Below, in pieces: positions 1,876 through 15,133 of a stretch of DNA of 53,269 nt. Both the position numbers and the translations under genes were made by a program. The notes beneath the pieces were generated by a model that worked only from the letters and a program-made list of their open reading frames with translations, ran no database searches and was not told the origin of the DNA. Position 1 is the stretch's first letter. Each line of letters starts with the position of its first letter. The DNA is from an uncultured Geobacter sp. (GTDB taxonomy: Bacteria > Desulfobacterota > Desulfuromonadia > Geobacterales > Geobacteraceae): positions 1 through 53,269 of the forward strand of contig CAIYDQ010000151.1 in NCBI GenBank assembly GCA_903925075.1, in the 5' to 3' direction.

Positions 1876-3090
1876 ATGGTCAACATGGAAAGAAAGCAAT
1901 TCCCGCTCTTGTATGTGCATCAGCATGCGCGGGGCATCGTCGGCTGGGGCGCCCACAAAGTGGCGGGGCAGGAGTGCCTGATGTACGGCATCAAGCACGC
2001 GCTGCTGGTGACCACCGGTCTGCAAGGGACCGGCATCGTCGACGAGGTCGAGGGGGTGCTGAAGCAGGCCGGCGTCGCGGTAACCATCTTCGACGGCGTC
2101 ACCTCGAATCCCAAGGACTACGAGGTAGCCGCCGGCACCAGGATGTATCTGGAAGCGGGCTGCGACGGCGTGGTGACGGTCGGCGGCGGCAGTGCCCACG
2201 ACGCCGGCAAGGGCATCCGCATCATGCTGACCAACAGCGGCGCCGACACCCGACTGCGCGATTTCGCTGCCGTGCTGGAGCCGCACTACACGACGCGGAT
2301 TCCCACCTACAAACCGGTCAATATCCCCCATGTGGCGATCAACACCACCTCCGGCACCGGCGCCGATTGCACCGCCTTCGCCATCATCAACGACGAGGAG
2401 CTGGTGTACAAGCTGATCCTGGTGGTGCCAGGGGTGGCGCCCAACGTCGGCATCAGCGAGCCGGCCTTCATGCGGCTGCAGCCGCCGCAATTGGTCGCCT
2501 GGACCGGCATGGACGCCTTTTGCCACGCCATCGAGCCGTTCATCGGCCGGCTCAACCTCCCCATTTCCCACGGCACCAGCCTGCGCGCCATCAAGCTCTT
2601 GAGCGAGAACCTGCGGCAGGGGTACGCCAATCCCAAGAACGACGTGGCGCTGGAAAACCTGATCTGGGCGCAGTTCATCGCCTCCATGTCCTACAACATG
2701 GGGGGCGGCATGGGGATGGTGCACGGCCTGGCGCACATGGTGTCGGTCATCAAGGGGCTGCATCACGGCTACGCCAACGCGCTCATGGTGCTGCCGGTGG
2801 AGAGGTTCAACTCCATCGCCTGTCCCGAGCGTTTCAAGGAGGTGGGCGAGGCCATGGGGCTGGACGTCCGACACCTGAGCCCGGTGCAGGCGACGGACAA
2901 GACCCTGGAAGAAATAGAGCGTCTGAGAAACGACGTCGGCATTCCCGCGGTCTCCCTGAGCGAGTTCGACTTCAGCGAGGCCGACATCGAGCATACCGTC
3001 AAGTGGGCCAGCAACGACCTCTCCATGGAAGCCAATCCCAGGGACATGAGTCCCGATCAGATAAGAACGATCCTGCGCAGTTGCATGTAG
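1876..3090 (+). CDS. Iron-type (group III) alcohol dehydrogenase, probably mycofactocin-linked
   Basis: A 404-residue iron-containing alcohol dehydrogenase. The nucleotide-binding loop VGGGSAHDAGKG is present, and the metal ligands align as D213 and H217 (MDAFCHAIE) with H283 and H297 (VHGLAH, HHGYANA), spaced as in FucO. CCGGAGGAACAGTC supplies the ribosome binding site before ATG 1876. It should interconvert a primary alcohol and an aldehyde; the substrate is unknown. Iron-type dehydrogenases with tightly bound NAD (nicotinoproteins) are known partners in mycofactocin clusters, and mftA begins 386 bp downstream. I therefore infer that electrons pass to mycofactocin rather than to free NAD. 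A hairpin follows the stop and mftA has its own promoter, so the gene is probably a separate transcription unit. Confidence 0.9.
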   Translation: MVNMERKQFPLLYVHQHARGIVGWGAHKVAGQECLMYGIKHALLVTTGLQGTGIVDEVEGVLKQAGVAVTIFDGVTSNPKDYEVAAGTRMYLEAGCDGVVTVGGGSAHDAGKGIRIMLTNSGADTRLRDFAAVLEPHYTTRIPTYKPVNIPHVAINTTSGTGADCTAFAIINDEELVYKLILVVPGVAPNVGISEPAFMRLQPPQLVAWTGMDAFCHAIEPFIGRLNLPISHGTSLRAIKLLSENLRQGYANPKNDVALENLIWAQFIASMSYNMGGGMGMVHGLAHMVSVIKGLHHGYANALMVLPVERFNSIACPERFKEVGEAMGLDVRHLSPVQATDKTLEEIERLRNDVGIPAVSLSEFDFSEADIEHTVKWASNDLSMEANPRDMSPDQIRTILRSCM

Positions 3091-3097
3091 ACCAACA

Positions 3098-3126
3098 GGG
3101 GACTGGCTCCGCAGGTGCCAGTCCCC
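3098..3126 (+). terminator. Strong hairpin after the alcohol dehydrogenase
   Basis: GGGGACTGGC (3098-3107) and GCCAGTCCCC (3117-3126) form a perfect 10-bp stem with a 9-base loop just after the dehydrogenase stop. No clear T-run follows, so it may be a weak terminator, an mRNA-stabilising hairpin or a small dispersed palindrome. Confidence 0.55.
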
Positions 3127-3174
3127 CTGCCTGCGCGGATTCAGATTCAACAGCGACCGTGGCAACATTGCGAC

Positions 3175-3203
3175 GTCGCGTTTCGTACCTCAACGCGACC
3201 TAC
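3175..3203 (-). repeat. Single REP hairpin (GTAG-headed)
   Basis: Read on the minus strand, this is GTAG followed by the palindrome arms GTCGCGTT and AAACGCGAC around an 8-base loop. It matches one arm of the larger paired elements at 13971, 22266 and 45254. The remaining sequence of the 3127-3400 gap shows no gene. Confidence 0.7.
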
Positions 3204-3400
3204 GGAAATGGGTGCCGGATGCGGACCGAGTTTCCGCTGTGGACAAATTACCCGTTGGGGAAAAACGCCACAACCGGCATTTTGAGCCAGTACTTTCTTT
3301 TCCCGCGAATCGCCCCTTTTCTCCACACATCATCGCAAGCCGCGCCGCCTCCCTCAAGGGCAAACCCGCCTGCAGAGGCCATAAATCGGCGTTTTATCGG

Positions 3401-3418
3401 TTGGCATCGCCGTTGCAT
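3401..3418 (+). promoter_or_regulatory. Sigma-54 (-24/-12) promoter of the mycofactocin operon
   Basis: TTGGCATCGCCGTTGCAT matches the sigma-54 consensus: GG at -24 and GC at -12 separated by exactly ten bases, with TTGCA at the -12 element. Transcription would begin near 3428, giving a leader of about 48 bases before mftA. Sigma-54 promoters need an ATP-driven enhancer-binding protein; none is encoded in the window. Confidence 0.75.
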
Positions 3419-3475
3419 AATGGGATGACAACAGTGAAGCATCCACGAGGATGCAAAAACAAAAAGGAGAAGCAA

Positions 3476-3583
3476 ATGGAAAACCAGATCGAAGCAGTTG
3501 AAGTTGGCACCGAAGAACCCTGCATCCTGGAAGAAATCAACGTCGAGGAACTGGCCATAGACGGCATCTGCGGGGTGTACTGA
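3476..3583 (+). CDS. mftA: Mycofactocin precursor peptide MftA
   Basis: A 35-residue ribosomal peptide ending IDGICGVY, against the family ending IDGMCGVY. In the characterised actinobacterial system the C-terminal Val-Tyr is decarboxylated and cross-linked by MftC, cut out by MftE and converted to the redox cofactor mycofactocin. The acidic leader (about residues 1-27, rich in Glu) is the expected part recognised by MftB. AAAAAGGAGAAGCAA gives a very strong ribosome binding site before ATG 3476, fitting a peptide made in excess. The core has Ile31 where many precursors have Met. It is immediately followed by mftB and mftC, which makes the assignment firm despite its size. Confidence 0.95.
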   Translation: MENQIEAVEVGTEEPCILEEINVEELAIDGICGVY

Positions 3584-3584
3584 G

Positions 3585-3833
3585 ATGGCGGCGGCAGGCA
3601 TAGCGCTGCATCCCGCCTGCCGCGTTCGGCGTGAAGGGTTCGGCCTCCTGTTTTACGATTTACGGGGGCCGCGCCTGCTTTTCGCCGAAACCGGCGACTT
3701 GATCCCGGTCGACTTTTTCGAGGCGCCGCGAGGGATGGACGAATTCCCGGACGGCGTCTCGGCTCGACAAAAAACGGTGTTGCAGAAGTTCGTCAAACAG
3801 CTTCTTGATAAAGGATTCCTCCGTGAGCAATAA
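3585..3833 (+). CDS. mftB: Mycofactocin peptide chaperone MftB (PqqD-like RRE)
   Basis: An 82-residue RiPP recognition element. The segment VRREGFGLLFYDLRG (about residues 14-28) is the typical start of the MftB/PqqD fold, and the C-terminal part is helical (SARQKTVLQKFVKQLLDKG). MftB binds the MftA leader and presents it to MftC. It begins one base after the mftA stop and its last codons overlap mftC, so the three are expected to be translated together. Length is within the small size range of stand-alone RREs. Confidence 0.92.
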   Translation: MAAAGIALHPACRVRREGFGLLFYDLRGPRLLFAETGDLIPVDFFEAPRGMDEFPDGVSARQKTVLQKFVKQLLDKGFLREQ

Positions 3834-4866
3834 ATACGTTGAGATGGGGCTGAGAGCCCCGGTAAATCTGACCTGGGAAGTCTCCCTGGCCTGCAACCTG
3901 CGCTGCACGACCTGCCTTTCCTCGTCTGGCGAGCCGGCGGCGGGCGAGTTGACCACGGCCGAGGCGCTCGACCTGGTGGAGCAGGTGCATCAGGCCCGGG
4001 TCTTCCAGATCAACTTCGGCGGCGGCGAGCCGTTCATGCGCCCGGACTTCGAGCAGATCCTGGACGCCTGCCATTCCCGGGGGATCATGACCTGCATCTC
4101 CACCAACGGCACGCTGATCGACGCCGAGCGGGTGGCGAGGCTCTCCAAGACCAAGCTGGTGGCGATCCAGGTGAGCCTGGACGGGGCGAGTCCCGCGACC
4201 TGCGACGCCGTCCGCGGCAAGGGCGTGTTCAACCGGGCGGTCGAGGCGGTCAAGCTCTTGGCCGCCTCCGAGATCCCGACCAGCATCAACACGGTGCTCA
4301 CCACCCAGAACGCCGGCGAAATACCGGCCATGTACGAGTTGGCCCGCTCCCTTTCCGTGTCGCTCAGGGTGAGCCGCTTCCGTCCTTCGGGCAGGGGCGC
4401 CGACAACTGGGAGCAGCTGCGCCCGACCCCGAGCCAACTGCTGGAGTTTTCCGACTGGCTGGCCAAAAGCGGCGACGTCAGGACCGGCGACAGCTTCTTC
4501 TCGCTTACCTCTCAGGAGCGCCAGGGGTTGGGACTGAACCTGTGCGGCGCCGCCAAGCTCACCTGCTGCGTCGGCCCCACCGGCAACATGTACCCTTGCG
4601 CCTTCCTGCAGACGGACCGCTTCTTCGCAGGGAGCCTGCGCGAGCGGAGCTTCCAGCAGATCTGGGACGACTCGGAGATCTACGATTCCTTCCGCAGCCT
4701 CCGGATCCACTCCTGCGAGGAGTGCACGCGCTTCGACCAGTGCCACGGCGGCTGCCCGGCGGTGGCCTGGCATCTGAAAAACGACATCAACGGCGGAGAC
4801 CCGGAGTGCCTGGAGCGCTGCGTGACCTCTATCGCGGACACGGCCAGGATCGCTGCCGCCGCCTGA
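3823..4866 (+). CDS. mftC: Mycofactocin maturase MftC (radical SAM/SPASM)
   Basis: A 347-residue radical S-adenosylmethionine enzyme. The SAM-cluster motif CNLRCTTC (C24, C28, C31) sits near the N-terminus, followed by the glycine-rich INFGGGEPF strand. The C-terminal SPASM domain holds C248/C249 and the cluster C298, C301, C307, C311 for auxiliary iron-sulfur clusters. It oxidatively decarboxylates the terminal Tyr of MftA and then forms a Val-Tyr carbon-carbon bond. GTG 3823 is preferred because AAAGGA lies seven bases upstream; it overlaps mftB by 11 bases. An in-frame TTG at 3805 is the alternative start. Confidence 0.95.
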   Translation: MSNKYVEMGLRAPVNLTWEVSLACNLRCTTCLSSSGEPAAGELTTAEALDLVEQVHQARVFQINFGGGEPFMRPDFEQILDACHSRGIMTCISTNGTLIDAERVARLSKTKLVAIQVSLDGASPATCDAVRGKGVFNRAVEAVKLLAASEIPTSINTVLTTQNAGEIPAMYELARSLSVSLRVSRFRPSGRGADNWEQLRPTPSQLLEFSDWLAKSGDVRTGDSFFSLTSQERQGLGLNLCGAAKLTCCVGPTGNMYPCAFLQTDRFFAGSLRERSFQQIWDDSEIYDSFRSLRIHSCEECTRFDQCHGGCPAVAWHLKNDINGGDPECLERCVTSIADTARIAAAA

Positions 4867-4894
4867 TAAAAAACTTAAAGCCAGGAGTTAGCCA

Positions 4895-6856
4895 ATGATG
4901 TTTCCGAACCTGTTTTCACCCTTAAAGATCGGCACGGTAGAGGTGAAGAACCGCATCTCGTTCCAGCCGCACCTGACCAACTTCGCGGTGAACTGCCTGC
5001 CCAGCGAACGCCAGATGTACTACTGGGGCGAGCGGGCCAAGGGTGGGGCCGGCCTCATCATCACCGAAGAGATGAGCGTGCATCCGACGGACATGGCCTA
5101 CGAGAAGCTGATCGACGTCTACCATGCCGAGGTGATCCCCGGCTTCAAGAAGATCACCGACTACGTGCACCAGTTCGACGCCAAGATCTTCGCGCAGTTG
5201 AACCACAACGGCCAGCAGTGCGACGGCGCCATCTCCAGGCTTCCGGTCTGGGCCCCCTCGCCCATGCCCGACGTGCTCTTTCGCGAGACCCCCAAGGAGA
5301 TGGAGCCGGAGGACATCGAGGAGGTGGCCCGCTACTTCGCCAAGAGCGCCATTCACGTGCGGGAAGGGGGCTTCGACGGCATCGAGCTGCAGTTCGGGCA
5401 TTCCAGCCTGTCGCGCCAGTTCCTCTCGCCGCTCACCAACTTCCGCACCGACGAGTACGGCGGCTGCCTGGAGAACCGCATGCGGGCGCCGCTCAAGTTC
5501 ATCGCCGCCGTGCGCCGCGCCATGGGGAACGACTTCACCATCGGCATCAGGATGTGCGCCGACGAGATGATCCCCGGCGGCCTCGACCTGGCGCAGGTCC
5601 AGGAGATCTGCGCGCGCTTCGAGGCGAGCGGCCTGATCGACTTCGTGGACCTCTCCATCGCCACCTTCTACAACCTCTACCTGGTGGAAGGCTCCATGCA
5701 CACTCCGCTCGGCTACACCATACCGCTTGCCGCCGGCATCCGGGAAAGGGTGAAGCTGCCGGTCTTCTGCACCGGCCGCGTCAACGATCCGGTGATGGCC
5801 GAAAAGGTGCTCGCCAACGGCCAGGCGGACATGATCGGCATGTGCCGGGCGCTCATCTGCGACCCCTTCCTCCCCAAGAAGGCCTTCGAGGGGAGGATGG
5901 ACGACATCCGCTACTGCGTGGCCGACAACCAGGGGTGCATCGGCCGCATGGGGGTGGGCAAGTCGCTGGGCTGCATCCAGAACCCGGCCGTCGGCCGCGA
6001 GAAGGAGTGGGGCGAGGGGAGCCTGCAAAAGGCGAGCGTCAAGAAGAAGGTCACGGTGGTCGGCGGCGGGCCCGGCGGGATGTGGGCCGCCAAGATGGCG
6101 GGACGCCGCGGGCATCAGGTGACCCTGCACGAGCGCAACGAGGCCCTGGGCGGGCAGGTGCTGACCGCCATGAAGGGAGCGGGGCGCGACGAGTTCGGCG
6201 TCATCGTCAGAAACGAGAAGACCCAGGTGGAGAAGGCCGGGGTCAGCGTGCGGCTGGGGAGCGAGTTGAACCGCGAGCAGGTGCTGGCCGGCCGCCCCGA
6301 CGTGGTGATCGTCGCCACCGGCAGTCAGCCCAAGTCCCACCCGGTGGGAGGGGCGGACGGTCCGGCGGTCTACAACGTCTGGGAGGTGCTGAACGGCAAG
6401 CCCGAACTGGGCGACAACGTCTGCGTGATCGACTACGACGGCCACCACCGCGCCTCGGCCACGGTCGAGTTCCTGGCCAACCAGGGGAAGAAGGTGCACG
6501 TGATCACCCCGAGCCTCTTCATCGGCGCCGAACTCGGCCCGACCCAGGACCTTTACCTGACCAGGCAGCGGCTGCTGCAAAAGGGGGTGACCCTCACCCC
6601 GGACATCGCGGTGATGGAGGTCGGCGGCGAGGCCGGCGCCAAGAAGGTCAAGGGGGTCAACGTCTATTCCAACGTCTGGAACGAGTGGGGTCCCTTCGAT
6701 TCGCTGGTGCTCGCCATGGGGCAGAAGGCCGACGACGATCTCTACCTGTCGCTCAAGGGGCAGGTCCCGGAGCTGTACCGGATCGGCGACAGCGTCGCTC
6801 CCCGCAAGGTGGACATGGCGATCTGGGAAGGGCACCGGGTCGGGAGGGAGATCTGA
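4895..6856 (+). CDS. OYE/2,4-dienoyl-CoA reductase-type flavoprotein of the mycofactocin cluster
   Basis: A 653-residue iron-sulfur flavoprotein. The N-terminal Old Yellow Enzyme barrel (about 1-335, FMN) carries QFLSPLTNFRTDEYGG and LENRMR. A [4Fe-4S] site links it to a C-terminal FAD/NAD(P) region with VVGGGPGGMWAA near residue 389 and the closing GD-x2-AP FAD motif. OYE-family oxidoreductases are recurrent members of mycofactocin clusters, so it may exchange electrons with the cofactor. Oddly, the cluster motif reads C341-V-A-D344-N-Q-G-C348 and C360: an Asp stands where dienoyl-CoA reductase has its second Cys. It lies 28 bases after mftC with a good binding site (CAGGAG) and overlaps ETF alpha by one base. 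Confidence 0.9.
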   Translation: MMFPNLFSPLKIGTVEVKNRISFQPHLTNFAVNCLPSERQMYYWGERAKGGAGLIITEEMSVHPTDMAYEKLIDVYHAEVIPGFKKITDYVHQFDAKIFAQLNHNGQQCDGAISRLPVWAPSPMPDVLFRETPKEMEPEDIEEVARYFAKSAIHVREGGFDGIELQFGHSSLSRQFLSPLTNFRTDEYGGCLENRMRAPLKFIAAVRRAMGNDFTIGIRMCADEMIPGGLDLAQVQEICARFEASGLIDFVDLSIATFYNLYLVEGSMHTPLGYTIPLAAGIRERVKLPVFCTGRVNDPVMAEKVLANGQADMIGMCRALICDPFLPKKAFEGRMDDIRYCVADNQGCIGRMGVGKSLGCIQNPAVGREKEWGEGSLQKASVKKKVTVVGGGPGGMWAAKMAGRRGHQVTLHERNEALGGQVLTAMKGAGRDEFGVIVRNEKTQVEKAGVSVRLGSELNREQVLAGRPDVVIVATGSQPKSHPVGGADGPAVYNVWEVLNGKPELGDNVCVIDYDGHHRASATVEFLANQGKKVHVITPSLFIGAELGPTQDLYLTRQRLLQKGVTLTPDIAVMEVGGEAGAKKVKGVNVYSNVWNEWGPFDSLVLAMGQKADDDLYLSLKGQVPELYRIGDSVAPRKVDMAIWEGHRVGREI

Positions 6857-7860
6857 TGGCGCTCCAAGGCAAGATCCTGGTCTTTGTCGATCTCCCGGAC
6901 GGGGAGCTTGACGAGACCGGCCGCGGGCTCCTTTCCTACGGGGGGCGCCTGGCCGGGATCGCGGGCCTTCCCTGGGAGGCGGTGGTCCCGGTAGCGCCCG
7001 GCGAGGAGGCGCGCACCGATTTCGCCCGCTTCGGCGCGCCGGCGGTGACCCAGCTCAACGAGGGCGCAGCACTCCTGGATGCGCCGGCGCACCTGGCGCA
7101 CGCCCTCTCTTCGCTGGCGAAAGAAGCCGGCGCAACCCTGCTGTTGCTCCCCCACAACGATCTGGGCGCGACGCTCGCCCCGATGGCGGCGGCCCGGCTG
7201 GGCGCGGCGCTTCTGACCGAGGTGGTCTCGGTGAAGAAGGGCGAGGGCGCGCTGGAACTCTCCCGACCGCTCCTCGGCCTTAGGCTTGCCGAGACCCGAA
7301 GCTGGGACGGCGCGGGTTCGCTGGTGATGACCGTTCCCGCCCGCTCCCTGAGCCAGGTGCTGCTGGCGACCGTGCGGCCGAGCGCGCCGGTCTTCTCCCG
7401 GTTCGCCGTCAAGGAGCCGTGCGCGGCCGATACGGCGCGGGTCACCGGGCGCATCCCGCCCGATCCGCAGACCGTCGACCTGAGCGACGCCGAGGTGATC
7501 TTCAGCGTCGGCAAGGGGTGCGATCCGGCGACCTTCGGCCAGTTGCAGGAACTTTGCCGCCTTTTGAACGTCTCCTGCGGGGTCACCCGTCCGGTATACG
7601 ACCTCGGCTGGACCGGCTTCGAGCGCATGGTGGGGCAGACCGGGCGCACCGTCACCCCGAGGCTCTACCTGGCGCTGGGCATTTCCGGCTCCATGCATCA
7701 CGTAGGCGGGATCAAGGACTCGCGCCGGATCGTTTCGGTGAACCTGGATCCGAAGGCGCCGATCTTTCCCAACTCCAACGAGGGGTACGTGGCCGATCTC
7801 AAGGAGATCCTGCCGCGCCTGATCGACCTGGCCAAAAACGCCCCGGGAGGTGCAGCATGA
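6856..7860 (+). CDS. etfA: Electron transfer flavoprotein alpha subunit
   Basis: A 334-residue ETF alpha subunit. The C-terminal FAD-binding signature is clear: GQTGRTVTPRLYLALGISGS, HHVGGIKDSRRIV and NLDPKAPIFPNSNEGYVADL. The N-terminal half is the weaker adenine-nucleotide-type domain. Its ATG overlaps the OYE stop (TGATG), and its end overlaps fixC (ATGA), so translation is coupled on both sides. ETF carries electrons between flavoprotein dehydrogenases and a membrane quinone reductase. The partner beta subunit is three genes downstream, which is an unusual split. Most likely partners here are the OYE-type protein or mycofactocin itself. Confidence 0.93.
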   Translation: MALQGKILVFVDLPDGELDETGRGLLSYGGRLAGIAGLPWEAVVPVAPGEEARTDFARFGAPAVTQLNEGAALLDAPAHLAHALSSLAKEAGATLLLLPHNDLGATLAPMAAARLGAALLTEVVSVKKGEGALELSRPLLGLRLAETRSWDGAGSLVMTVPARSLSQVLLATVRPSAPVFSRFAVKEPCAADTARVTGRIPPDPQTVDLSDAEVIFSVGKGCDPATFGQLQELCRLLNVSCGVTRPVYDLGWTGFERMVGQTGRTVTPRLYLALGISGSMHHVGGIKDSRRIVSVNLDPKAPIFPNSNEGYVADLKEILPRLIDLAKNAPGGAA

Positions 7861-9155
7861 GTAGATCGTTTCAGGCCATCGTGGTGGGCGCAGGCCCCGC
7901 CGGCTCCTCCGCGGCGCTGACCATGGCGCGGGCGGGACTGGATGTCGCGCTGGTCGAGCGGGGCAGCTTCCCCGGCGAGAAGAACATGTTCGGCGGGGTG
8001 CTGCACCGGCTCCCCTCCTTGGAAAAGATCTTCCCGGATTTCTGGGAGCGGGCGCCTCTGGAGCGGCACATCGTCAAGAAGGGGGTCACCTTCATGACCG
8101 GCGACTCCAGTTTCAACACCACCATCGAGGCGGGGAGCTTCGACCGGCCCCCCTTCAACGGCTACACCATCTTCCGGCCGCGCTTCGACCGCTGGCTGGC
8201 CGAAGAGGCCGTCAAAGCAGGGGCGACCCTGATCACCCGCGCCAGCGTCGACGAGGTGCTGCAGAGCGACGGCCAGGTGACCGGCGTCACCATCCTGGAT
8301 CGCAAGGGCGCGCTGAAGGCGCCGGTGGTGGTGGCGGCCGACGGCGTGCTCTCCTTCACCGCGCTGAAGGCGGGGCTCAGGCGGCCGAGCTTCGATCCGG
8401 GGCAGATGGCGGTCGGCGTCAAGGCGCTGATCGATCTCGAAAGCGACCTGATCGACGAGCGTTTCGGCCTGGTCCGCGAGCAGGGCTTCGCCAACGAATT
8501 CGTCGGCTGCACGGCAGGCGTTCGCGGCGGCGGCTTTCTCTATACCAACTACGATTCGCTCTCCGTAGGCCTCGTCTTCCACCTGGCGAGCCTGAAGGGG
8601 AGCGGCAAGACCCCCTACGATCTCTTGAACGCCTTTCTCGAGCAGCCGCAGGTCGCCAAGATGGTGCGCGGCGGCAGGTTGCAGGAGTATTCGGCGCACC
8701 TGATCCCGGAGGGGGGGTACGACATGATCCCCGAGCTTTACGGTGCCGGCATCCTGGTGGCCGGAGACGCGGCGGCCCTTTGCAACGCCACCGGGCTGAA
8801 CCTGGAGGGGATCAACCTCGCCTCGCAGTCGGGGGTACTGGCGGGGGAGGCGGCGATCGCCGCGCACAAGGCGCGGGATTTCAGCCGCAAGGGGCTGTCG
8901 ATCTACAAGAGCCTGCTGGACGAAAGCTACGTGATGAAGGACCTGAAGAGCTACCGGCGCGCGCCGCAGATGCTGCACAACAACCGGATCTACAACGAGT
9001 ATCCGGAGCTGGTCTGCAGCCTGATGGAGCAGTTGTACCGGATCGAGGGGACGCCCAAGGAGAACCTGTCCAAGCTGTTCCTGAAGGCGGCCCGCGACAA
9101 GGTCGGGCTCAAGAACCTGGCGGCGGACGGCTTCAGCGCATGGAGAGCACTATGA
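7857..9155 (+). CDS. fixC: ETF-quinone oxidoreductase, FixC type
   Basis: A 432-residue FAD-dependent geranylgeranyl-reductase-like protein of the FixC/ETF-QO family. The N-terminal dinucleotide-binding motif IVVGAGPAGSSAAL is followed by NMFGGVLHRL. The second FAD motif ILVAGDAAALCNATGLNLEG near residue 300 and the C-terminal region match FixC. FixC passes electrons from ETF to quinone and needs the FixX ferredoxin, whose gene overlaps the fixC stop. A GGGAGGTG ribosome binding site precedes ATG 7857. No transmembrane helix is evident, so it is probably a peripheral membrane protein. Confidence 0.93.
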   Translation: MSRSFQAIVVGAGPAGSSAALTMARAGLDVALVERGSFPGEKNMFGGVLHRLPSLEKIFPDFWERAPLERHIVKKGVTFMTGDSSFNTTIEAGSFDRPPFNGYTIFRPRFDRWLAEEAVKAGATLITRASVDEVLQSDGQVTGVTILDRKGALKAPVVVAADGVLSFTALKAGLRRPSFDPGQMAVGVKALIDLESDLIDERFGLVREQGFANEFVGCTAGVRGGGFLYTNYDSLSVGLVFHLASLKGSGKTPYDLLNAFLEQPQVAKMVRGGRLQEYSAHLIPEGGYDMIPELYGAGILVAGDAAALCNATGLNLEGINLASQSGVLAGEAAIAAHKARDFSRKGLSIYKSLLDESYVMKDLKSYRRAPQMLHNNRIYNEYPELVCSLMEQLYRIEGTPKENLSKLFLKAARDKVGLKNLAADGFSAWRAL

Positions 9156-9430: not shown

Positions 9431-9454
9431 GACGAAAAGACGAAAAAGCCCGTT

Positions 9455-9528
9455 AAAAAGTCCATGAAGTCCACAAAGTCCACAAAGTCCACAAAGTCCA
9501 CAAAGTCCACAAAGTCCACGGACTTTTT
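9455..9528. repeat. 9-bp tandem repeat bounded by an inverted repeat
   Basis: Seven back-to-back 9-bp units (9458-9520) of the type AAGTCCACA, with AAGTCCATG first and AAGTCCACG last. The array is closed by AAAAAGTCC (9455-9463) and GGACTTTTT (9520-9528), so the transcript can form a hairpin across the whole array. It lies in the 119-bp gap between fixX and ETF beta, where all surrounding genes overlap. Copy number may vary between strains. Confidence 0.9.
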
Positions 9529-9549
9529 AGATACTTACGGAGTTGGCCA

Positions 9550-10443
9550 ATGACCTTCACAAACCTCGACATACTCGTACTGCTCCGGGAAGTGAGCGAC
9601 CCCAGGCCCCCCGCGCGTTGCACCGCCCGCGGCGCCGGCGTCAGCGACCGCGGCCTCAGGCGCTTCCCCAACCCGGCCGATCTCTCCGCCCTGGAGGAGG
9701 CTCTCTGCCTCAAGGACTCGCTCGGCGCAAAGGTGACGGTGCTCGCCGTGGGGGAGGAGAGCCAGGACGACCTGCTGCGGCTCGCTTTTTCCATGGGCGC
9801 TGACCGGGCGATACGCTGCTGGGACCACGGCATGGACGGAGGGGACGCCGCGGCCGACGCCCGCGTGCTGGCCCGGATACTGGAGATCCTGAAACCGACG
9901 CTCTTTCTCTCCGGCAACCGCCTGGCCGACCGGGGCGACGATCCGGCGCCGGCCCTGGCCGCCGCCCTGAACGGCGCTCCCTGCATCTCCTCGGCCGTCT
10001 CGCTGGCGCTCAAAACCGGCGTGGTCGAGGTGCTCAGAAAAGGGGACCGCGGCTCACGGCAGACGGTGACCGCCCTCTTCCCCTGCGCCGTCCTTTGCGA
10101 GGAGGCGCGCACACCGCGCTACCCTGCCGTCGACGCGGTGATCGCCTCCCTCGGCGGCTCCATCGAGCGCTGGGGGCTCCCTGAACTGGGGTTGCCGTTC
10201 TGGGAGATCGGCGCTACCGGTGCCCTCCTTCCCGTCGCGCGCGTCGGTACGCCGCGTCCCGACCCGGTCCGGCTGGTGACTCCGGATCCCGAGCTTCCCG
10301 CCTTCGAGCGGATTCTTTCGCTTTTGTCCGGCGGCATCAAGGCGCGCGAGGGGCGGGTGCAGGCGCTTTCCGCCGACGACACGGCGGCGGCGCTTTGGGA
10401 TCTTTTCCGCCAGGAAGGTGTTGCGCCCGAGGCCTCGCTATGA
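9550..10443 (+). CDS. etfB: Electron transfer flavoprotein beta subunit
   Basis: A 297-residue ETF beta-type subunit. The N-terminus LDILVLLREVSDPRP and the central NPADLSALEEALCLKDSLGAKVTVLAVGEE follow the ETF-beta plan, with the GADRAIRC segment after it. Beta subunits bind AMP or, in bifurcating ETFs, an extra FAD; which applies cannot be decided here. It would pair with the alpha subunit at 6856. Its C-terminus (about residues 215-297) diverges from canonical ETF beta. It follows the 9-bp repeat gap and overlaps mftF by ATGA, tying electron transfer to cofactor glycosylation. Confidence 0.87.
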   Translation: MTFTNLDILVLLREVSDPRPPARCTARGAGVSDRGLRRFPNPADLSALEEALCLKDSLGAKVTVLAVGEESQDDLLRLAFSMGADRAIRCWDHGMDGGDAAADARVLARILEILKPTLFLSGNRLADRGDDPAPALAAALNGAPCISSAVSLALKTGVVEVLRKGDRGSRQTVTALFPCAVLCEEARTPRYPAVDAVIASLGGSIERWGLPELGLPFWEIGATGALLPVARVGTPRPDPVRLVTPDPELPAFERILSLLSGGIKAREGRVQALSADDTAAALWDLFRQEGVAPEASL

Positions 10444-11873
10444 AATACCGCATGCTGCCGGAGATAGAGCTTTTGGAGCGCGACGGCGGGAGTTTCCTGA
10501 TGGCCAAGACTCCCCTGACGCTGTTGCGCTTGAACGCCCCCCTGCTGGCGCTCGCCAGGCGCGCCATGGCCGGTCCGATCTCGGCCGCCGGAGCCGCCGA
10601 GGAGAAGGTGCTGGAACAGCTTGCCCTGAAGGGCTTTGCGGAGCGCTTGCAGGAGGCGGCGCCTGCGCAGGCCGCGCTTCCCTCCATCAGCATCGTGATC
10701 CCGGTGCTGGACAGGGAAGAGGAGCTGGAGCGCTGCCTTGCATCCATCGCCCGCCTCGATTATCCGGGGGACAAGATCCAGGTGATCGTGGTGGACGACG
10801 GCTGCCGGGACGGTTCAGCGCAGGTCGCCAGGAACCGCGGCGCGCTGGTGGTTTCCTCGGGAGGCGTCAGGCGCGGCCCGGCGGCGGCCCGCAACGTCGG
10901 CGCCGCCCGGGCGAGCGGCGAATTGCTCGCCTTCATAGATTCGGATTGCTCGGCCTCGACGGGGTGGTTGGCGCAACTGGTGCCGATTTTCGGCGACACG
11001 CGGATCGCGGCGGTCGGCGGGATGGTCGACGGCATGTGCAGCGCCTCCGGCGTCGATCGCTACGAGGCGGTCATGTCCAGCCTGTCGCTTGGCTCCCGCG
11101 AGCGCTTCGGCGGCTCCGGCGACGACACCTTCTATCTGCCGAGCTGCAACCTGCTGGTGCGGCGGGCGCTCTTTCTGGCCGTCAACGGCTTCGTGGACAG
11201 CATGCATGTCGGCGAGGACGTGGATCTTACCTGGAGGCTGCGCGATGCGGGCTGGACCATCGCCTACCTCCCCGCCGGCAACATCCTGCACGAGCACAGA
11301 AGTTCGCTGCGCTCCTTCATGTCGCGGCGCTTCGACTACGGCACCTCCGAGGGGATGCTGCAAAAACTCCATCCTCAAAGGCGCAAGCGCTTCGTGCTGC
11401 CGCCGCTTCTGGGGCTGGTGGCGGCCCTTTGCCTGCTGGCCCCTTTTTGCGGCTGGTGGCCGGTCCCGGTGGCCGCCGCGCTTTTGCTCGGCGACGCCTC
11501 GGTGTACCGCCTGCGGCTGGCGCGCCGGGGCGCTCCGCTGGGGCTGTCGGCGATACTTGCCGGGCGGCTGCGGGCGCTGGGTGGACTTTGCTATTACCTC
11601 AGTTATCATCTGCTGCGCTACTACGCCTTGGCGATGGCCGGCCTGGCGCTGGTGCTGCCGGTCCTCTGGGCGCTCCCGGTAGCCTGCCTGCTGATCAGCG
11701 CCGGGGTCGACTATCGCATCAAAAAGCCGCGCCTGTCGCCGTTGGCCTTCACCGGCATCTACCTGCTGGAGCAGGTCGCCTACGGCGCCGGCGTCTTCTG
11801 GGGCTGTCTGCGCGGCCGCGAATTTGCCAGCTACCGCGTGACCGTCCTCAGCAGGATGGAACTCGCCGCATAA
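10440..11873 (+). CDS. mftF: Mycofactocin glycosyltransferase MftF
   Basis: A 477-residue membrane-attached family-2 glycosyltransferase. The first 60 residues (KYRMLPEIELLERDGGSFLM, then TPLTLLRLN) match the MftF-specific N-terminal region. The GT-A domain begins near residue 81 (SISIVIPVLDREEELERCL) with VVDDG, a FIDSDCS motif near 165 and the acceptor-side GEDVDLTWRLRDAG. Several hydrophobic helices follow from about residue 316. In mycobacteria MftF adds an oligoglucose chain to the matured peptide. ATG 10440 was chosen because it overlaps the ETF beta stop; the frame is open a little upstream. It confirms that the locus makes glycosylated mycofactocin. Confidence 0.92.
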   Translation: MKYRMLPEIELLERDGGSFLMAKTPLTLLRLNAPLLALARRAMAGPISAAGAAEEKVLEQLALKGFAERLQEAAPAQAALPSISIVIPVLDREEELERCLASIARLDYPGDKIQVIVVDDGCRDGSAQVARNRGALVVSSGGVRRGPAAARNVGAARASGELLAFIDSDCSASTGWLAQLVPIFGDTRIAAVGGMVDGMCSASGVDRYEAVMSSLSLGSRERFGGSGDDTFYLPSCNLLVRRALFLAVNGFVDSMHVGEDVDLTWRLRDAGWTIAYLPAGNILHEHRSSLRSFMSRRFDYGTSEGMLQKLHPQRRKRFVLPPLLGLVAALCLLAPFCGWWPVPVAAALLLGDASVYRLRLARRGAPLGLSAILAGRLRALGGLCYYLSYHLLRYYALAMAGLALVLPVLWALPVACLLISAGVDYRIKKPRLSPLAFTGIYLLEQVAYGAGVFWGCLRGREFASYRVTVLSRMELAA

Positions 11874-11892
11874 TCGAAAAACGCAGCATCTT

Positions 11893-11984
11893 TCTCCGAG
11901 CCTTTGCCGCCTACCGGGTATATCCCCACGGCGACGGGCCTACGGGTTTCGCGGGAAACCGCGGCGCCTCCCTTTGGAAAGGAG
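11893..11984 (+). promoter_or_regulatory. Moco/Tuco-type riboswitch candidate
   Basis: The 162-base leader of the AOR gene contains CTCCGAGCC at its start, a CCGGG...CCC hairpin, a perfect GGTTTC/GAAACC stem (11945-11960), the segment GCGGCGCCTCCC, and a closing CTCC...GGAG hairpin ending GGAAAGGAG. From memory this order matches the molybdenum/tungsten-cofactor RNA motif, whose Tuco variants precede tungsten-enzyme genes. A further GNRA-capped hairpin (GCGGC-GCGA-GCCGC) follows near 11992-12006, before the AOR binding site. Confirmation needs a covariance-model search. Confidence 0.65.
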
Positions 11985-12035
11985 AATTCACGCGGCGCGA
12001 GCCGCACTATTCAACCAAGGGAAAGGAGTAGAAAA

Positions 12036-13772
12036 ATGGACAAGATTGCACGCATCGACATGGGGGCCGCAGGCGGCCCGACGGTAACCGTAGGACCTTT
12101 GGGCGAGTACCAGGGACTGGGCGGGCGCGCCATGACCTCTATCGTGGTCGCCGCCGAGGTCCATCCGCTGGCCCATGCGCTGGGAGCGGAGAACAAGCTG
12201 GTGATCGCGCCGGGGATGCTGAGCGGCACCACCGGCTCCATGACCGGCAGGCTGTCGGTCGGCTGCAAGAGCCCGCTCACCGGCACCATCAAGGAGTCGA
12301 ACGCGGGCGGCCAGGCGGCTCAAGTGCTGGCGCGTCTGGGCTACGCCGCCGTCATCATCGAGGGGAAGCCGACCGGCAGCGATCTGTACAAGATCGTCAT
12401 CAACAAGGACGGCATCCAGGTGATCGTCGACAACAGCCTGAAACTCATGGACAACTACCCGCTGGTGGCCAAACTGCGCGGCGAGTACGGGGACAAGGTG
12501 GCCTACATGACCATCGGCAGCGCCGGCGAGCGCATGCTGTTGGCGGCCTCCATCGCCTGCACCGATCCCGAACTGCGCCCGACCAGGCATTGCGGGCGCG
12601 GCGGCGTGGGCGCGGTCATGGGCGCCAAGGGGATCAAGGCAATCATCCTGGACGACGCGGGCATGAAGATGCGCCCGCCGGTCGATCCCCAAAAGTACCG
12701 GGACGCCAACCGCAAGTTCGTGGAAGGGTTGAGAAAGCATCCGGTCACCGGCGAGGGGCTTCCCGCCTACGGCACCAACGTGCTCACCAACGTCCTCAAC
12801 GAGGCCGGCGGCTATCCGACCAGGAACTTCAAGTCCGGCCAGTTCGAAGGGGCGGCCAGCTTGAGCGGCGAGGCCCAGGCCGAGCTGGAGATCAAGAGGG
12901 GAGGGAGCGCCACCCACGGCTGCCATCGCGGCTGCGTCATCCAGTGCTCCGGCATCTACAACGACAAGGACGGCAACTACCTCACCAAACAGCCGGAATA
13001 CGAGACCGTCTGGTCCCACGGCGGGCACTGCGGCATCTCCAACCTGGACACCGTGGCGACCCTCGATTACATGGACGACAACATCGGGGTCGACACCATC
13101 GAGATGGGGGTCACCATCGGCGTCGCCATGGACGCCGGCATCATCGAGTTCGGCGACGAGGCGGGCGCCATCAGGCTGATGGAGGAAGTGGGCAAGGGGA
13201 CTCCGCTCGGGCGCGTGCTCGGCTGCGGCGCCTCGGTCACCGGCAAGGTCTTTGCCGTCGAGCGGGTGCCGGTCGTCAAGGACCAGGCTCTCCCCGCCTA
13301 CGATCCGCGCGCCATCCAGGGGATCGGCGTCACCTACGCCACCACCACCCAGGGGGCCGACCATACCGCCGGCTACGCCATCGCCACCAACATCCTCAAG
13401 GTGGGCGGCGACGTGGACCCGCTGAAGACCGAGGGACAGGTCGATCTTTCCCGCAACCTGCAAATTGCCACCGCCGCCATCGACTCGACCGGCATGTGCC
13501 TGTTCATCGCCTTCGCCATCATGGATCAGCCCGAGACCTTCCAGGCGCTGCTCGACATGCTCGGCGGCTTCCACGGCATCGAGATGACCGGCGACGACGT
13601 GGTGGCGCTGGGTAAGAAGGTGCTGCTCGCCGAGCGCGACTTCAACACCCGCGCCGGTTTCACCAAGCACCATGACCGGCTGCCGCGCTTTTTCTACAAC
13701 GAGACGATCGCGCCGCACGACCAGACCTTCATGATGAAGGACGAGGAACTGGACGAAGTTTTCAACTTTTAG
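12036..13772 (+). CDS. aor: Aldehyde:ferredoxin oxidoreductase (tungsten/molybdenum)
   Basis: A 578-residue member of the AOR family, which oxidises aldehydes to carboxylates with a bis-pterin tungsten or molybdenum centre and one [4Fe-4S] cluster. Cluster ligands are C296, C300 and C304 (CHRGCVIQC) plus C488 (STGMCLF). The first spacing is three residues rather than the two of Pyrococcus AOR, as I recall for YdhV-like members. N-terminal pterin-binding landmarks include GGRAMTSIVVAAEV and the GRLSVGCKSPLTG segment. The binding site GGAAAGGAGTAG precedes ATG 12036; the frame is open further upstream only through the leader RNA. It probably removes the aldehyde made by the alcohol dehydrogenase. 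Confidence 0.93.
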   Translation: MDKIARIDMGAAGGPTVTVGPLGEYQGLGGRAMTSIVVAAEVHPLAHALGAENKLVIAPGMLSGTTGSMTGRLSVGCKSPLTGTIKESNAGGQAAQVLARLGYAAVIIEGKPTGSDLYKIVINKDGIQVIVDNSLKLMDNYPLVAKLRGEYGDKVAYMTIGSAGERMLLAASIACTDPELRPTRHCGRGGVGAVMGAKGIKAIILDDAGMKMRPPVDPQKYRDANRKFVEGLRKHPVTGEGLPAYGTNVLTNVLNEAGGYPTRNFKSGQFEGAASLSGEAQAELEIKRGGSATHGCHRGCVIQCSGIYNDKDGNYLTKQPEYETVWSHGGHCGISNLDTVATLDYMDDNIGVDTIEMGVTIGVAMDAGIIEFGDEAGAIRLMEEVGKGTPLGRVLGCGASVTGKVFAVERVPVVKDQALPAYDPRAIQGIGVTYATTTQGADHTAGYAIATNILKVGGDVDPLKTEGQVDLSRNLQIATAAIDSTGMCLFIAFAIMDQPETFQALLDMLGGFHGIEMTGDDVVALGKKVLLAERDFNTRAGFTKHHDRLPRFFYNETIAPHDQTFMMKDEELDEVFNF

Positions 13773-13811
13773 CAGGCGCTTTAGCCCGCGGGAAGCTGAT
13801 CCTCACCACAT

Positions 13812-13905
13812 CCCCACTGCCGTTAACTCAAGCTTTTGCCGAGACTCCCCCTCCCCTTCCGGGAGGGGGCTGGGGGGTGGGGGAAGGCGCCACGTCAGCA
13901 AATAT
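13812..13905. repeat. C-tract/G-tract repeat element
   Basis: This copy begins with ACTGCCGTTAACTCAAGC and continues with GCTTTTGCCGAGACTCC, then a CCCCCTCCCC / GGGAGGGGGC hairpin and GGGGGAAGGCGCCA. The copy at about 25324 is nearly identical over its length. Together with the BIME at 13971 it fills much of the gene-free gap 13773-14255. Confidence 0.7.
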
Positions 13906-13970
13906 TGGTAATTCCCCCCCCTGACCCATACACTCGCAAGGGGAGGGCGGATCCTTTGGTGCAAAGCTCC

Positions 13971-14079
13971 GTAGGTCGCGTTGAGGTACGAAACGCGACG
14001 TTGCCATGCCGGCCATGGCGGTAATGTTTGCGATATCGCTGCGTTGCGTTTCACGATAAACCCGTTCAACGCAACCTAC
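13971..14079. repeat. BIME-like pair of GTAG-headed REP hairpins
   Basis: The element starts GTAGGTCGCGTTGAGG and ends TCAACGCAACCTAC, giving inverted ends. Each end is itself a hairpin: GTCGCGTT/AAACGCGAC on the left and GTTGCGTT/AACGCAAC on the right, each preceded by GTAG when read outward-in. GTAG plus a palindrome is the hallmark of REPs mobilised by the single-strand TnpA-REP (RAYT) transposases. Confidence 0.8.
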
Positions 14080-14255
14080 CGGATTGTTTTCCTTCAAAAC
14101 CAGAGGGGCTCAAACCCCGACGAATTTTTTCTTTGCAGGTTGCCGGGCTTGCTGCTATAGCTTGCTTTTCTTGTTATAGCAGGCATTTCGCCTGTTGATG
14201 TCGACGCCGCGTAGCTGTCGACGCGGGGTGGCGAGGACGCCGACCAGGAGTGTCT

Positions 14256-14873
14256 ATGGAGCAGACTCTGGATGACCAAGGAATCGGCCAAACGCATCTG
14301 GAGCGTGGCCAGCCTGTCTGCGAGAGCGTTGCACTCAAGGTAGGGGAGGAGCAGCTCAGCGCCTTTTTCCCGCTGCTGCAGCGCGGCGTGACCATACCGG
14401 CCCAGGTGGGCTGCTCGCTCCAGGAGCTCCTCTGCGATCAGTTGGGGATTCCCGCCGACTATGTCGCCGGACGCATCACCACCATCTTCCTGGACAACCG
14501 TCCCGTCGACGCTCTCGGCGCTCTCATCGGTGAAGGCGCGAGGATCGCCCTCTCGGCGGCCATGCCCGGACTGGTCGGGGCGGTGATGCGGCGCTCCGGC
14601 TTCTATGCGGCGCTGCGCCAGGGGATCACCCACGCGGAGAACTCCGGCGCGCTCAAGGCTGGCAGCGGCACGGTCAGCATCAAGCTGTTCAACCTCCTGC
14701 TGCCGGAGATCGGTCCGCTTATTCTGGCGCACGGGGTTTTTTTGCAGCGACCGGAGCTCACCGTGCTGCTGGAGGAACTCTCTTCCTCCGGCCGCGCCGA
14801 GATTGTATTCTCCAACCCCTGCGGGCCTAACGCCGTGGGAGCGGTGCTGCTTACGGCCACACTGATCCAATAG
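14256..14873 (+). CDS. Protein of unknown function in the AOR cluster
   Basis: A 205-residue soluble-looking protein that I do not recognise. It has no signal peptide and no convincing membrane helix, though LGALIGEGARIALSAAMPGL is fairly hydrophobic. The C-terminus (FSNPCGPNAVGAVLLTATLI) is glycine- and alanine-rich; two Cys near the N-terminal half (VCES, VGCSLQELLC) could bind metal but form no clear motif. ATG 14256 follows AGGAG by five bases. It sits 35 bases before a MoaD-like gene and after the AOR, so a role in tungsto-/molybdopterin handling or AOR maturation is a reasonable guess. It is not a creatininase-type MftE. Confidence 0.75.
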   Translation: MEQTLDDQGIGQTHLERGQPVCESVALKVGEEQLSAFFPLLQRGVTIPAQVGCSLQELLCDQLGIPADYVAGRITTIFLDNRPVDALGALIGEGARIALSAAMPGLVGAVMRRSGFYAALRQGITHAENSGALKAGSGTVSIKLFNLLLPEIGPLILAHGVFLQRPELTVLLEELSSSGRAEIVFSNPCGPNAVGAVLLTATLIQ

Positions 14874-14908
14874 CATCGCCGTCGAACATCGGAAAAGGAG
14901 CGAGCATC

Positions 14909-15133
14909 ATGCAGGTCACCGTCAAACTTTTCGCCAGCTTTCGCACTGGCCGCCTCCCCATCGAGGTCTGCGAATATCCGGTAGGCGCCACCGTGGCCGA
15001 CGTGGTCGCGGACAAAGGTATTCCGGTGGCGGAGCTTGGCATCATGTTGATCAACAGCCGCCACGTAGCCTTGGACCGGGAACTAGCCGAGGGCGACATC
15101 CTGGCCATTTTCCCGCTGCTGGGAGGGGGGTGA
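14909..15133 (+). CDS. MoaD/ThiS-family sulfur carrier
   Basis: A 74-residue ubiquitin-like protein with the MoaD start (VTVKLFASFRTG) and end (DGDILAIFP-type, here EGDILAIFPLLGGG). The C-terminal glycines are adenylated and thiocarboxylated so that sulfur can be delivered to the pterin dithiolene. The protein ends in three glycines rather than the usual two. Anaerobes often carry an extra MoaD beside AOR genes, presumably dedicated to the tungsten cofactor. AAAAGGAGCGAGCATC supplies the binding site. The gene ends the cluster, 61 bases before a strong terminator. Confidence 0.9.
   Translation: MQVTVKLFASFRTGRLPIEVCEYPVGATVADVVADKGIPVAELGIMLINSRHVALDRELAEGDILAIFPLLGGG

What the first reader, a model, noticed from the sequence alone, without database searches (positions are those of the whole stretch)
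1876..15133. Mycofactocin locus rewired to ETF/FixCX and an aldehyde oxidoreductase, lacking mftD, mftE, mftG and mftR
mftA, mftB, mftC and mftF are clear, yet the dehydrogenase (MftD), the creatininase-type peptidase (MftE), the GMC-type oxidase (MftG) and the TetR regulator of the actinobacterial system are absent from the window. In their place sit an OYE-type flavoprotein, ETF alpha and beta, FixC and FixX in an overlapping operon, flanked by an iron alcohol dehydrogenase and an AOR. This suggests an anaerobic respiratory version: alcohol to aldehyde to acid, with mycofactocin electrons entering the quinone pool through ETF.
Basis: partly seen in the sequence, partly recalled or inferred. 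Interest (0 to 1): 0.78.

Follow-up and report, generated by a model that had tools for sequence, protein, structure and literature searches.

The report
Mycofactocin cluster with swapped maturation enzymes
This bacterium carries genes for the redox cofactor mycofactocin in which one standard maturation enzyme seems to be replaced by a flavoprotein chain that may pass electrons to the respiratory membrane.

Summary
The window carries variant mftA, mftB, mftC, an OYE_2 flavoprotein, ETF-alpha, FixC, FixX, ETF-beta, mftF and an AOR in one direction. MftE, MftD, MftG and MftR are absent from the 99.97%-complete genome at model cut-off. The layout recurs in 29 of 29 related loci as far as contigs reach.

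The interpretation needs changing. The OYE-ETF-FixCX set also sits in mft loci on Streptomyces and haloarchaeal plasmids, where MftE is kept, so it is not an anaerobic speciality. In 12 mftC plasmid records MftD (4) and the set (8) never co-occur; in 48 genomes of the phylum MftD (1) and OYE_2 (43) never co-occur; the states swap repeatedly on the MftC tree. OYE_2 resembles ETF-linked amine dehydrogenases, but also reductases. Best reading: the set replaces MftD, with ETF and quinone as acceptors, and may also re-oxidise the cofactor. MftE loss is a separate trait.

Haft 2011 shows the Geobacter cluster; BGCFlow 2024 shows mftD-less, OYE-bearing Saccharopolyspora clusters. Nothing here is tested experimentally.

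The parts
1876..3090 (+). Iron-type alcohol dehydrogenase with the TSNPKDYE motif that Haft 2011 tied to mycofactocin nicotinoproteins
   Evidence: Pfam PF00465/PF25137; motif; motif source PMC3023750; motif also in one genome without an MftF match (G391)
3476..3583 (+). mftA precursor, variant type, C-terminus IDGICGVY
   Evidence: NF040489 and TIGR03969 over cut-off; start
3585..3833 (+). mftB chaperone
   Evidence: TIGR03967 64.5 bits, cut-off 33
3823..4866 (+). mftC radical SAM maturase (GTG start likely; ORF open from 3805)
   Evidence: TIGR03962 349.6 bits, cut-off 265
4895..6856 (+). OYE_2: FMN/4Fe-4S-type flavoenzyme, proposed AHDP dehydrogenase in MftD's place
   Evidence: TIGR03997 976 bits, cut-off 793; full-length to NCR, TMADH, histamine dehydrogenase; residue alignment
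6856..7860 (+). ETF alpha subunit
   Evidence: PF00766, PF01012; NF038209 132 bits, below cut-off 240; PDB ETF-alpha matches
7857..9155 (+). FixC-type ETF:quinone oxidoreductase
   Evidence: NF007450/NF007542 below their cut-offs; closest solved 7koe_C FixC 273 bits
9152..9430 (+). FixX-type ferredoxin-like protein
   Evidence: NF011993 58 bits, below cut-off 166; 7koe_D
9457..9519 (+). 9-bp tandem repeat AAAGTCCAC, 7 copies, in the FixX/ETF-beta gap
   Evidence: TRF
9550..10443 (+). ETF beta subunit
   Evidence: PF01012; TIGR04503 63 bits, below cut-off 200
10440..11873 (+). mftF glycosyltransferase
   Evidence: TIGR03965 355.9 bits, cut-off 280; start
12036..13772 (+). Aldehyde ferredoxin oxidoreductase (AOR)
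   Evidence: PF01314/PF02730; 9mqx, 1aor
14256..14873 (+). Conserved protein of unknown family that travels with the AOR
   Evidence: homologs after the AOR in 15 of 18 related loci that show an AOR (two of the other three are cut); alignment; no Pfam, NCBIfam or PDB match
14909..15133 (+). MoaD/ThiS-like sulfur carrier
   Evidence: PF02597

Best explanation
The cluster makes mycofactocin by a route in which MftD, the FMN enzyme that oxidatively deaminates AHDP, is replaced by a five-gene chain. OYE_2 takes two electrons from the C-N bond of the AHDP-type core (free amine to keto amide), passes them through its 4Fe-4S cluster to the dedicated ETF, and FixC/FixX pass them to menaquinone. Shown here: the genes, their order, the genome-wide absence of MftD/E/G/R at cut-off, the exclusion between MftD and this set in the records examined, the repeated swap, and the homology of OYE_2 to ETF-linked amine dehydrogenases. 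Inferred: the substrate, the direction of electron flow and the quinone as acceptor. The same chain may also re-oxidise reduced mycofactocin. The peptidase step must be done by an unlinked peptidase, which I did not identify. The Fe-ADH and AOR are the cofactor's likely users (alcohol to aldehyde to acid).
For: (1) Slot: in Geobacterales and Streptomyces the set lies between mftC and mftF, where mftD lies in canonical loci. (2) Exclusion: of 12 mftC plasmid records, 4 have MftD, 8 have the set, 0 both (chance 0.002 with fixed margins, ignoring kinship). Of 48 genomes with MftC or MftF, 1 has MftD over cut-off (G410), 43 have OYE_2 over cut-off, 0 both; G410's mft cluster lacks the set. (3) Swaps: on the MftC tree the MftD label needs 4 changes, at least 3 forced by well-supported branches, and G410 is nested among set-bearing loci. 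(4) MftE is kept with the set in 5 of 5 annotated Streptomyces records and in Haloterrigena, with a creatininase just under cut-off in Halolamina, so the set stands in for MftD, not MftE. (5) OYE_2 is full-length related to TMADH and histamine dehydrogenase, which use ETF (PMC6502838 passages). It keeps the TMADH His172 position in 46 of 46 readable OYE_2-type rows, and like those two has no GxGxxG in the second Rossmann domain. (6) Deleting mftD in M. smegmatis abolishes mycofactocin (PMC7491314 passages), yet Saccharopolyspora clusters lack mftD, carry TIGR03997, and S. erythraea is reported to make a methylated mycofactocin (PMC11162802 passages). (7) Precedent: Pno, a TMADH-family enzyme with non-covalent FMN, EtfAB and clustered ETF:QO, does the reaction of an unrelated amine oxidase (PMC7688666 passages).
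Against: The best-scoring solved relatives of OYE_2 are two reductases, NCR (319 bits) and FadH (260), ahead of TMADH (235). NCR also lacks an NADPH site (PMC6502838), so that lack does not single out amine dehydrogenases. TMADH's Cys30, Trp264 and Asp267 are not kept. The best solved matches of both ETF subunits are not TMADH's ETF (third for beta, tenth for alpha). A whole ETF and ETF:QO looks costly for one low-flux step and would suit a recycling role. The set also excludes MftG (0 of 7 annotated set-bearing plasmid loci in the stretches seen; 2 of 4 MftD loci have it), so exclusion alone does not choose between MftD and MftG. G076's cluster L079 has mftABCF without the set beside it (its OYE_2 is on another contig); G171 and G197 show neither enzyme over cut-off. 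In Streptomyces SAT1 the OYE_2 match is split over two frames. NCBIfam's text for TIGR03997 (recalled) names Rhodococcus, and R. jostii has MftD, so exclusion may not be universal.
Confidence: 0.55

Rival explanations
1. One reading: OYE_2-ETF-FixCX re-oxidises reduced mycofactocin and feeds its electrons to quinone, doing MftG's work; AHDP deamination is done by some unlinked enzyme.
For: MftG over cut-off in 0 of 48 genomes; about 25% of mftC genomes lack MftG and its substitute is called an open question (PMC11778925 passages); PMFT midpoint -255 mV (PMC7491314 passages) is well below menaquinone (recalled); a full respiratory chain suits high flux.
Against: Leaves the MftD step without an enzyme; G410 has MftD, no set in its cluster and no MftG over cut-off, so the set is not needed for recycling there; the family precedents that use ETF are amine dehydrogenases.
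Confidence: 0.22
2. One chain, both jobs: the set oxidises AHDP during synthesis and reduced mycofactocin during use. Where OYE_1 and OYE_2 are paired, the two may have split the tasks.
For: Exclusion of both MftD and MftG by the set; OYE_1 plus OYE_2 pairs annotated in Streptomyces and paired OYE genes in some Desulfobacterota loci (L082, L085, L091, L093).
Against: The Geobacterales-type loci show a single OYE_2 in the cluster; no test here separates the two substrates.
Confidence: 0.15
3. The ETF/FixC/FixX part is an EtfABCX-type bifurcating complex, and OYE_2 a reductase fed by it.
For: FixC and FixX are closest to the solved FixC and ferredoxin-like chains of 7koe (273 and 67 bits); the best solved matches of ETF-beta and ETF-alpha, 4kpu and 5ol2, are bifurcating ETFs (recalled); OYE_2 scores best with reductases.
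Against: ETF-beta has GNRLxDRGDDPxPALAA in most related loci where 4kpu and 5ol2 have a GDTAQVGP stretch (that this marks bifurcation is recalled); 7koe is only seventh best for ETF-beta.
Confidence: 0.08

Closest known systems
Mycofactocin cluster of Geobacter uraniireducens and Pelotomaculum (Haft 2011, PMC3023750; found passages and section 9 read)
   Same: Same system; the paper draws the G. uraniireducens cluster, notes a clustered Fe-ADH, and says that MftD, MftE and the TetR regulator are not in all species.
   Different: The passages read do not mention ETF, FixC/FixX, AOR or an exclusion between MftD and OYE_2; the roles of MftD and MftE were then unknown. Figure 2 itself could not be seen.
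mftD-less Saccharopolyspora mycofactocin clusters (BGCFlow 2024, PMC11162802; found passages read)
   Same: mftD missing, TIGR03997 present, mycofactocin production cited for S. erythraea.
   Different: 'Electron transfer' has 0 hits in the text and no replacement mechanism is stated in the passages; MftE appears kept, since at least six of seven genes are matched with mftD the exception.
NCBIfam 'mycofactocin-associated ETF alpha/beta' and 'FadH/OYE oxidoreductase 1/2'
   Same: The families exist and name these genes in Streptomyces plasmid records.
   Different: Window ETF subunits fall below the ETF cut-offs (132 of 240; 63 of 200); OYE_2 is above its cut-off.
TMADH, histamine dehydrogenase and Pno with ETF and ETF:QO
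   Same: Three-domain FMN/4Fe-4S architecture, conserved His, no NAD(P) motif, ETF and quinone oxidoreductase genes nearby as for Pno.
   Different: No covalent-FMN Cys, pocket residues differ, substrate here unknown.

Membership tests
Mycofactocin biosynthesis system | MftA, MftB, MftC and MftF together, each over its NCBIfam cut-off | tested here: met
   NF040489 46.1/30, TIGR03967 64.5/33, TIGR03962 349.6/265, TIGR03965 355.9/280
Canonical actinobacterial mft operon | MftD, MftE, MftG and MftR present | tested here: not met
   None over cut-off in own genome. Positive controls: MftE of two Streptomyces 302-315 bits and G410 MftD 648 bits; no positive control was run for the MftG and MftR models
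TIGR03997 mycofactocin OYE_2 | Score over cut-off 793 | tested here: met
   976 bits
NF038209/TIGR04503 mycofactocin-associated ETF | Scores over cut-offs 240 and 200 | tested here: not met
   132 and 63 bits, though each is the best match of its protein
ETF-linked amine dehydrogenase (TMADH/histamine dehydrogenase/Pno) | Full-length three-domain homology | tested here: met
   1djn residues 9-695, 3k30 13-669
ETF-linked amine dehydrogenase (TMADH/histamine dehydrogenase/Pno) | His172 of TMADH, and no GxGxxG in second Rossmann domain | tested here: met
   (residue roles recalled); NCR, a reductase, also lacks an NADPH site
ETF-linked amine dehydrogenase (TMADH/histamine dehydrogenase/Pno) | TMADH Cys30 (covalent FMN), Trp264, Asp267 | tested here: not met
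   Leu, Leu and Val in the window; Pno also binds FMN non-covalently
ETF-linked amine dehydrogenase (TMADH/histamine dehydrogenase/Pno) | Amine oxidation with ETF as acceptor | not testable with these tools
   Needs enzyme assay
EtfABCX bifurcating complex | FixC and FixX homology | tested here: met
   7koe_C 273 bits, 7koe_D 67 bits
EtfABCX bifurcating complex | GDTAQVGP-type motif of the second FAD in ETF-beta | tested here: not met
   GNRLADRGDDPAPALAAAL in the window; same pattern in most relatives; meaning of motif recalled
Mycofactocin-linked Fe-ADH | TSNPKDYE motif | tested here: met
   not specific, since G391, without an MftF match, has it too

The most novel reading that the evidence does not exclude
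Nature has two interchangeable ways to finish mycofactocin: a lactate-dehydrogenase-type enzyme (MftD), and a TMADH-type amine dehydrogenase wired through its own ETF and ETF:quinone oxidoreductase to the membrane. The second both builds the cofactor and recycles it, needs no oxygen, and has been swapped with the first several times in evolution. In Desulfobacterota the dedicated peptidase has also been dropped.
Probability: 0.35. Interest if true: 0.75.

Novelty: new variant of a known kind. Interest (0 to 1): 0.6.

Why it matters
It gives a testable proposal for how mftD-less organisms that are reported to make mycofactocin can do so, and a candidate for the open question of what, if anything, replaces MftG in the quarter of mftC genomes without it (PMC11778925). 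It extends mycofactocin chemistry to Geobacter-type metal reducers and names an enzyme system (OYE_2, ETF, FixCX) that could be assayed with synthetic AHDP and reduced premycofactocin. Cluster-finding rules that demand MftD miss this type, as BGCFlow noted for antiSMASH 6.1.1.

Tried and rejected
Unlinked creatininase as MftE: the window's genome has none. Sub-cut-off creatininases (95-128 bits, plus one 31-bit fragment; cut-off 172) occur in 30 of 48 mft genomes but also in 9 of 12 genomes of the same class without an MftF match. One, L040, sits beside a QueE-like radical SAM gene (identity by eye) and scores the same with the general creatininase model (121 and 120 bits). Rejected as MftE, though the haloarchaeal MftE-type proteins at 159-177 bits show that divergent forms score low.

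Unlinked FMN_dh as MftD: only partial hits in the own genome (53.6 bits at best; at most 23.7 with the MftD model). Rejected.

AlphaFold model of OYE_2: mean pLDDT 46, not used and not searched. Model of the 14256-14873 protein: pLDDT 74 but no convincing PDB fold match (best E 0.18).

RNA fold of the FixX/ETF-beta gap: z -0.2. Promoter and terminator scans: about as many as in shuffles.

Wider survey of Actinomycetota genomes: not possible, so exclusion rests on 12 plasmid records and 48 genomes. Rows dropped: in the OYE alignment, ORFs under 550 residues and two OYE_1 reading frames run together with mftC; in the MftC tree, loci with MftC under 300 residues or under 38% identity, and L079 uncounted.

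Paper searches: mycofactocin + mftE + Geobacter 0 papers; mycofactocin + trimethylamine dehydrogenase 0 papers; further mycofactocin searches. Two papers that might bear on it (PMC9679996, PMC6449177) are not held. 'Not in print' here means only: not found in these searches.


Full report
What is there. The window is contig C151 of a 6.55 Mb genome, 99.97% complete with 2.68% contamination. Between 1876 and 15133, all on the + strand, lie Fe-ADH, mftA, mftB, mftC, OYE_2, ETF-alpha, FixC, FixX, ETF-beta, mftF, AOR, an orphan protein and a MoaD-like protein. MftA, MftB, MftC, MftF and OYE_2 each pass their NCBIfam cut-off; the two ETF subunits, FixC and FixX match their families below cut-off. 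OYE_2, ETF-alpha, FixC and FixX overlap by 1-4 bases. A 119-base gap with a 9-bp tandem repeat separates FixX from ETF-beta. Co-transcription is thus likely but not shown; promoter and terminator scans gave about as many sites as shuffles.

What is missing. In the own genome there is no creatininase, no MftE, no MftD beyond fragments of at most 23.7 bits, no MftG and no MftR at E 1e-10. Positive controls: MftE of two Streptomyces plasmids scores 302-315, the haloarchaeal homologs 177 and 159, and G410's MftD 648. None was run for MftG and MftR.

How widespread. A protein-guided scan of the genome collection with mftC gave 29 loci, titled as Geobacter, Geobacteraceae, Desulfuromonadales, Pelobacter, Trichlorobacter or unclassified Deltaproteobacteria. 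The gene order from mftA to mftF is the same in 29 of 29 as far as each contig reaches (L013 reaches only mftC); 15 of 29 show all ten genes mftA to AOR. An Fe-ADH of 88-89% identity beside mftA is seen in 2 (L006, L007). A draw of 395 genomes of the phylum found 19, own included, with MftF over cut-off. I therefore searched 48 genomes (own, 29 by MftC, 18 by MftF). For 7 of the 18 (G112, G324, G281, G171, G197, G237, G309) the stretch fetched shows no close mftC, mostly because it is cut. MftE over cut-off: 0 of 48. MftD: 1 of 48. MftG: 0 of 48. MftR: 0 of 48. OYE_2 was over cut-off in 43 of these 48 and in 0 of 12 genomes of the class without an MftF match. The five without: G013 and G309 have partial hits (678 and 736 bits), G410 and G171 only more distant paralogs (462 and 525), G197 none at E 1e-100.

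Exclusion of MftD and the OYE-ETF-FixCX set. Twelve plasmid records hold a good mftC match. Four have mftD and no such set in the stretch seen: Thermomicrobium, M. chubuense, Streptomyces NBC_00080, Tsukamurella. Seven annotated records have the set and no mftD: Haloterrigena, Halolamina and five Streptomyces; in SAT1 the OYE_2 match is unannotated and split over two frames. S. lavendulae is unannotated and counted with them, because its OYE_1, OYE_2 and ETF-alpha match as in S. yangpuensis. A direct search for MftD in all plasmids finds the same four mft records and two Sphingopyxis ones without an annotated gene at the place. No mft record has both. In the phylum, the one MftD genome, G410, has an mft cluster (L083) without the set; its MftD lies about 19 kb from mftF on the same contig and is 62% identical to a Streptomyces MftD. 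On a 50-row MftC tree the MftD label needs 4 changes, 3 forced by well-supported branches, with G410 inside a starred group of 35 whose other rows are set-bearing. That tree is a quick one with some long branches; L013's label comes from its genome's OYE_2, and L079 was not counted.

MftE is a separate matter. With the set, Streptomyces keep MftE (5 of 5 annotated records) and Haloterrigena has it next to mftA; Halolamina has a creatininase just under the cut-off. The 48 genomes of the phylum lack it at cut-off whether they have the set or MftD. M. smegmatis without mftE still makes mycofactocin at lower level, which the authors ascribe to an unknown peptidase (PMC7491314 passages), so the loss need not block synthesis.

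What OYE_2 probably does. Its solved relatives are NCR, FadH, TMADH and histamine dehydrogenase, in that order of score; that the two reductases lead speaks against the amine-dehydrogenase reading. Three things speak for it. His stands at the TMADH His172 position in 39 of 39 Desulfobacterota (window included), 5 of 5 readable Streptomyces and 2 of 2 haloarchaeal OYE_2-type rows, against 0 of 4 Streptomyces OYE_1 rows and 0 of 1 OYE_1-like Desulfobacterota row. The second Rossmann domain has no GxGxxG (IDYDGHH in the window), as in TMADH and histamine dehydrogenase, which bind ADP and pass electrons from the cluster to ETF; NCR too lacks an NADPH site and is thought to take electrons from ferredoxin (PMC6502838 passages). 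And OYE_2 has its own ETF and ETF:quinone oxidoreductase genes. The pocket differs from TMADH, so the substrate must differ. The nicotine enzyme Pno is a precedent for a TMADH-type enzyme with EtfAB and ETF:QO doing the reaction of an unrelated amine oxidase (PMC7688666 passages). MftD's reaction is an oxidative deamination, and without mftD M. smegmatis makes no mycofactocin (PMC7491314). Saccharopolyspora clusters lack mftD, carry TIGR03997, and S. erythraea is reported to make the cofactor (PMC11162802 passages; the primary paper is not held). That MftD uses oxygen in vitro is my recollection and was not found in the passages read.

What remains open. The set also excludes MftG (annotated in 2 of 4 MftD plasmid loci, 0 of 7 annotated set-bearing loci, in the stretches seen), so a recycling role is not ruled out, alone or in addition. 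G410, with MftD but neither the set in its cluster nor MftG over cut-off, argues mildly against recycling as the set's essential role. The ETF-beta motif does not look like that of bifurcating ETFs, but FixC and FixX are closest to the 7koe complex and the best solved ETF matches are 4kpu and 5ol2, bifurcating by recollection; I raised that rival from 0.06 to 0.08 for this. Nothing here is experimental.

Verdict. The parts are known to annotators; the exclusion, the repeated swap and the amine-dehydrogenase reading were not found in the paper searches listed.

Noticed in passing
window 14256-14873: Conserved protein of about 200 residues that follows the AOR in 15 of 18 related loci showing an AOR; no Pfam, NCBIfam, PDB-sequence or PDB-fold match. 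AMPGLVGA is invariant in the 14 aligned rows.
   Followed up: partly
window 4895-6856 (residue 344 of OYE_2): The second of four Fe-S cluster cysteines is Asp in 16 of 39 Desulfobacterota OYE_2 rows, the window among them, and Cys in the other 23.
   Followed up: partly
L117 (G000:C87:1-20000): Second alcohol-oxidation locus in the same genome: two Fe-ADHs, histidine kinase, sigma-54 response regulator, MoaA-type protein and another AOR.
   Followed up: partly
window 778-1722, - strand: LysR-like regulator (by eye) pointing away from the Fe-ADH.
   Followed up: no
window 231-734, - strand: NUDIX protein; a similar protein (by eye) also sits next to mftA in G410 (L083 13143-13673). Haft 2011 lists an NADH pyrophosphatase among mft-profile hits.
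   Followed up: no
L079 12894-13100: MftA of G076 ends GICGIY, an Ile-Tyr core instead of Val-Tyr.
   Followed up: no
window 9457-9519: Seven copies of AAAGTCCAC between FixX and ETF-beta.
   Followed up: no
L082, L085, L091, L093: Some Desulfobacterota clusters carry two OYE genes in tandem, as Streptomyces do with OYE_1 and OYE_2.
   Followed up: no
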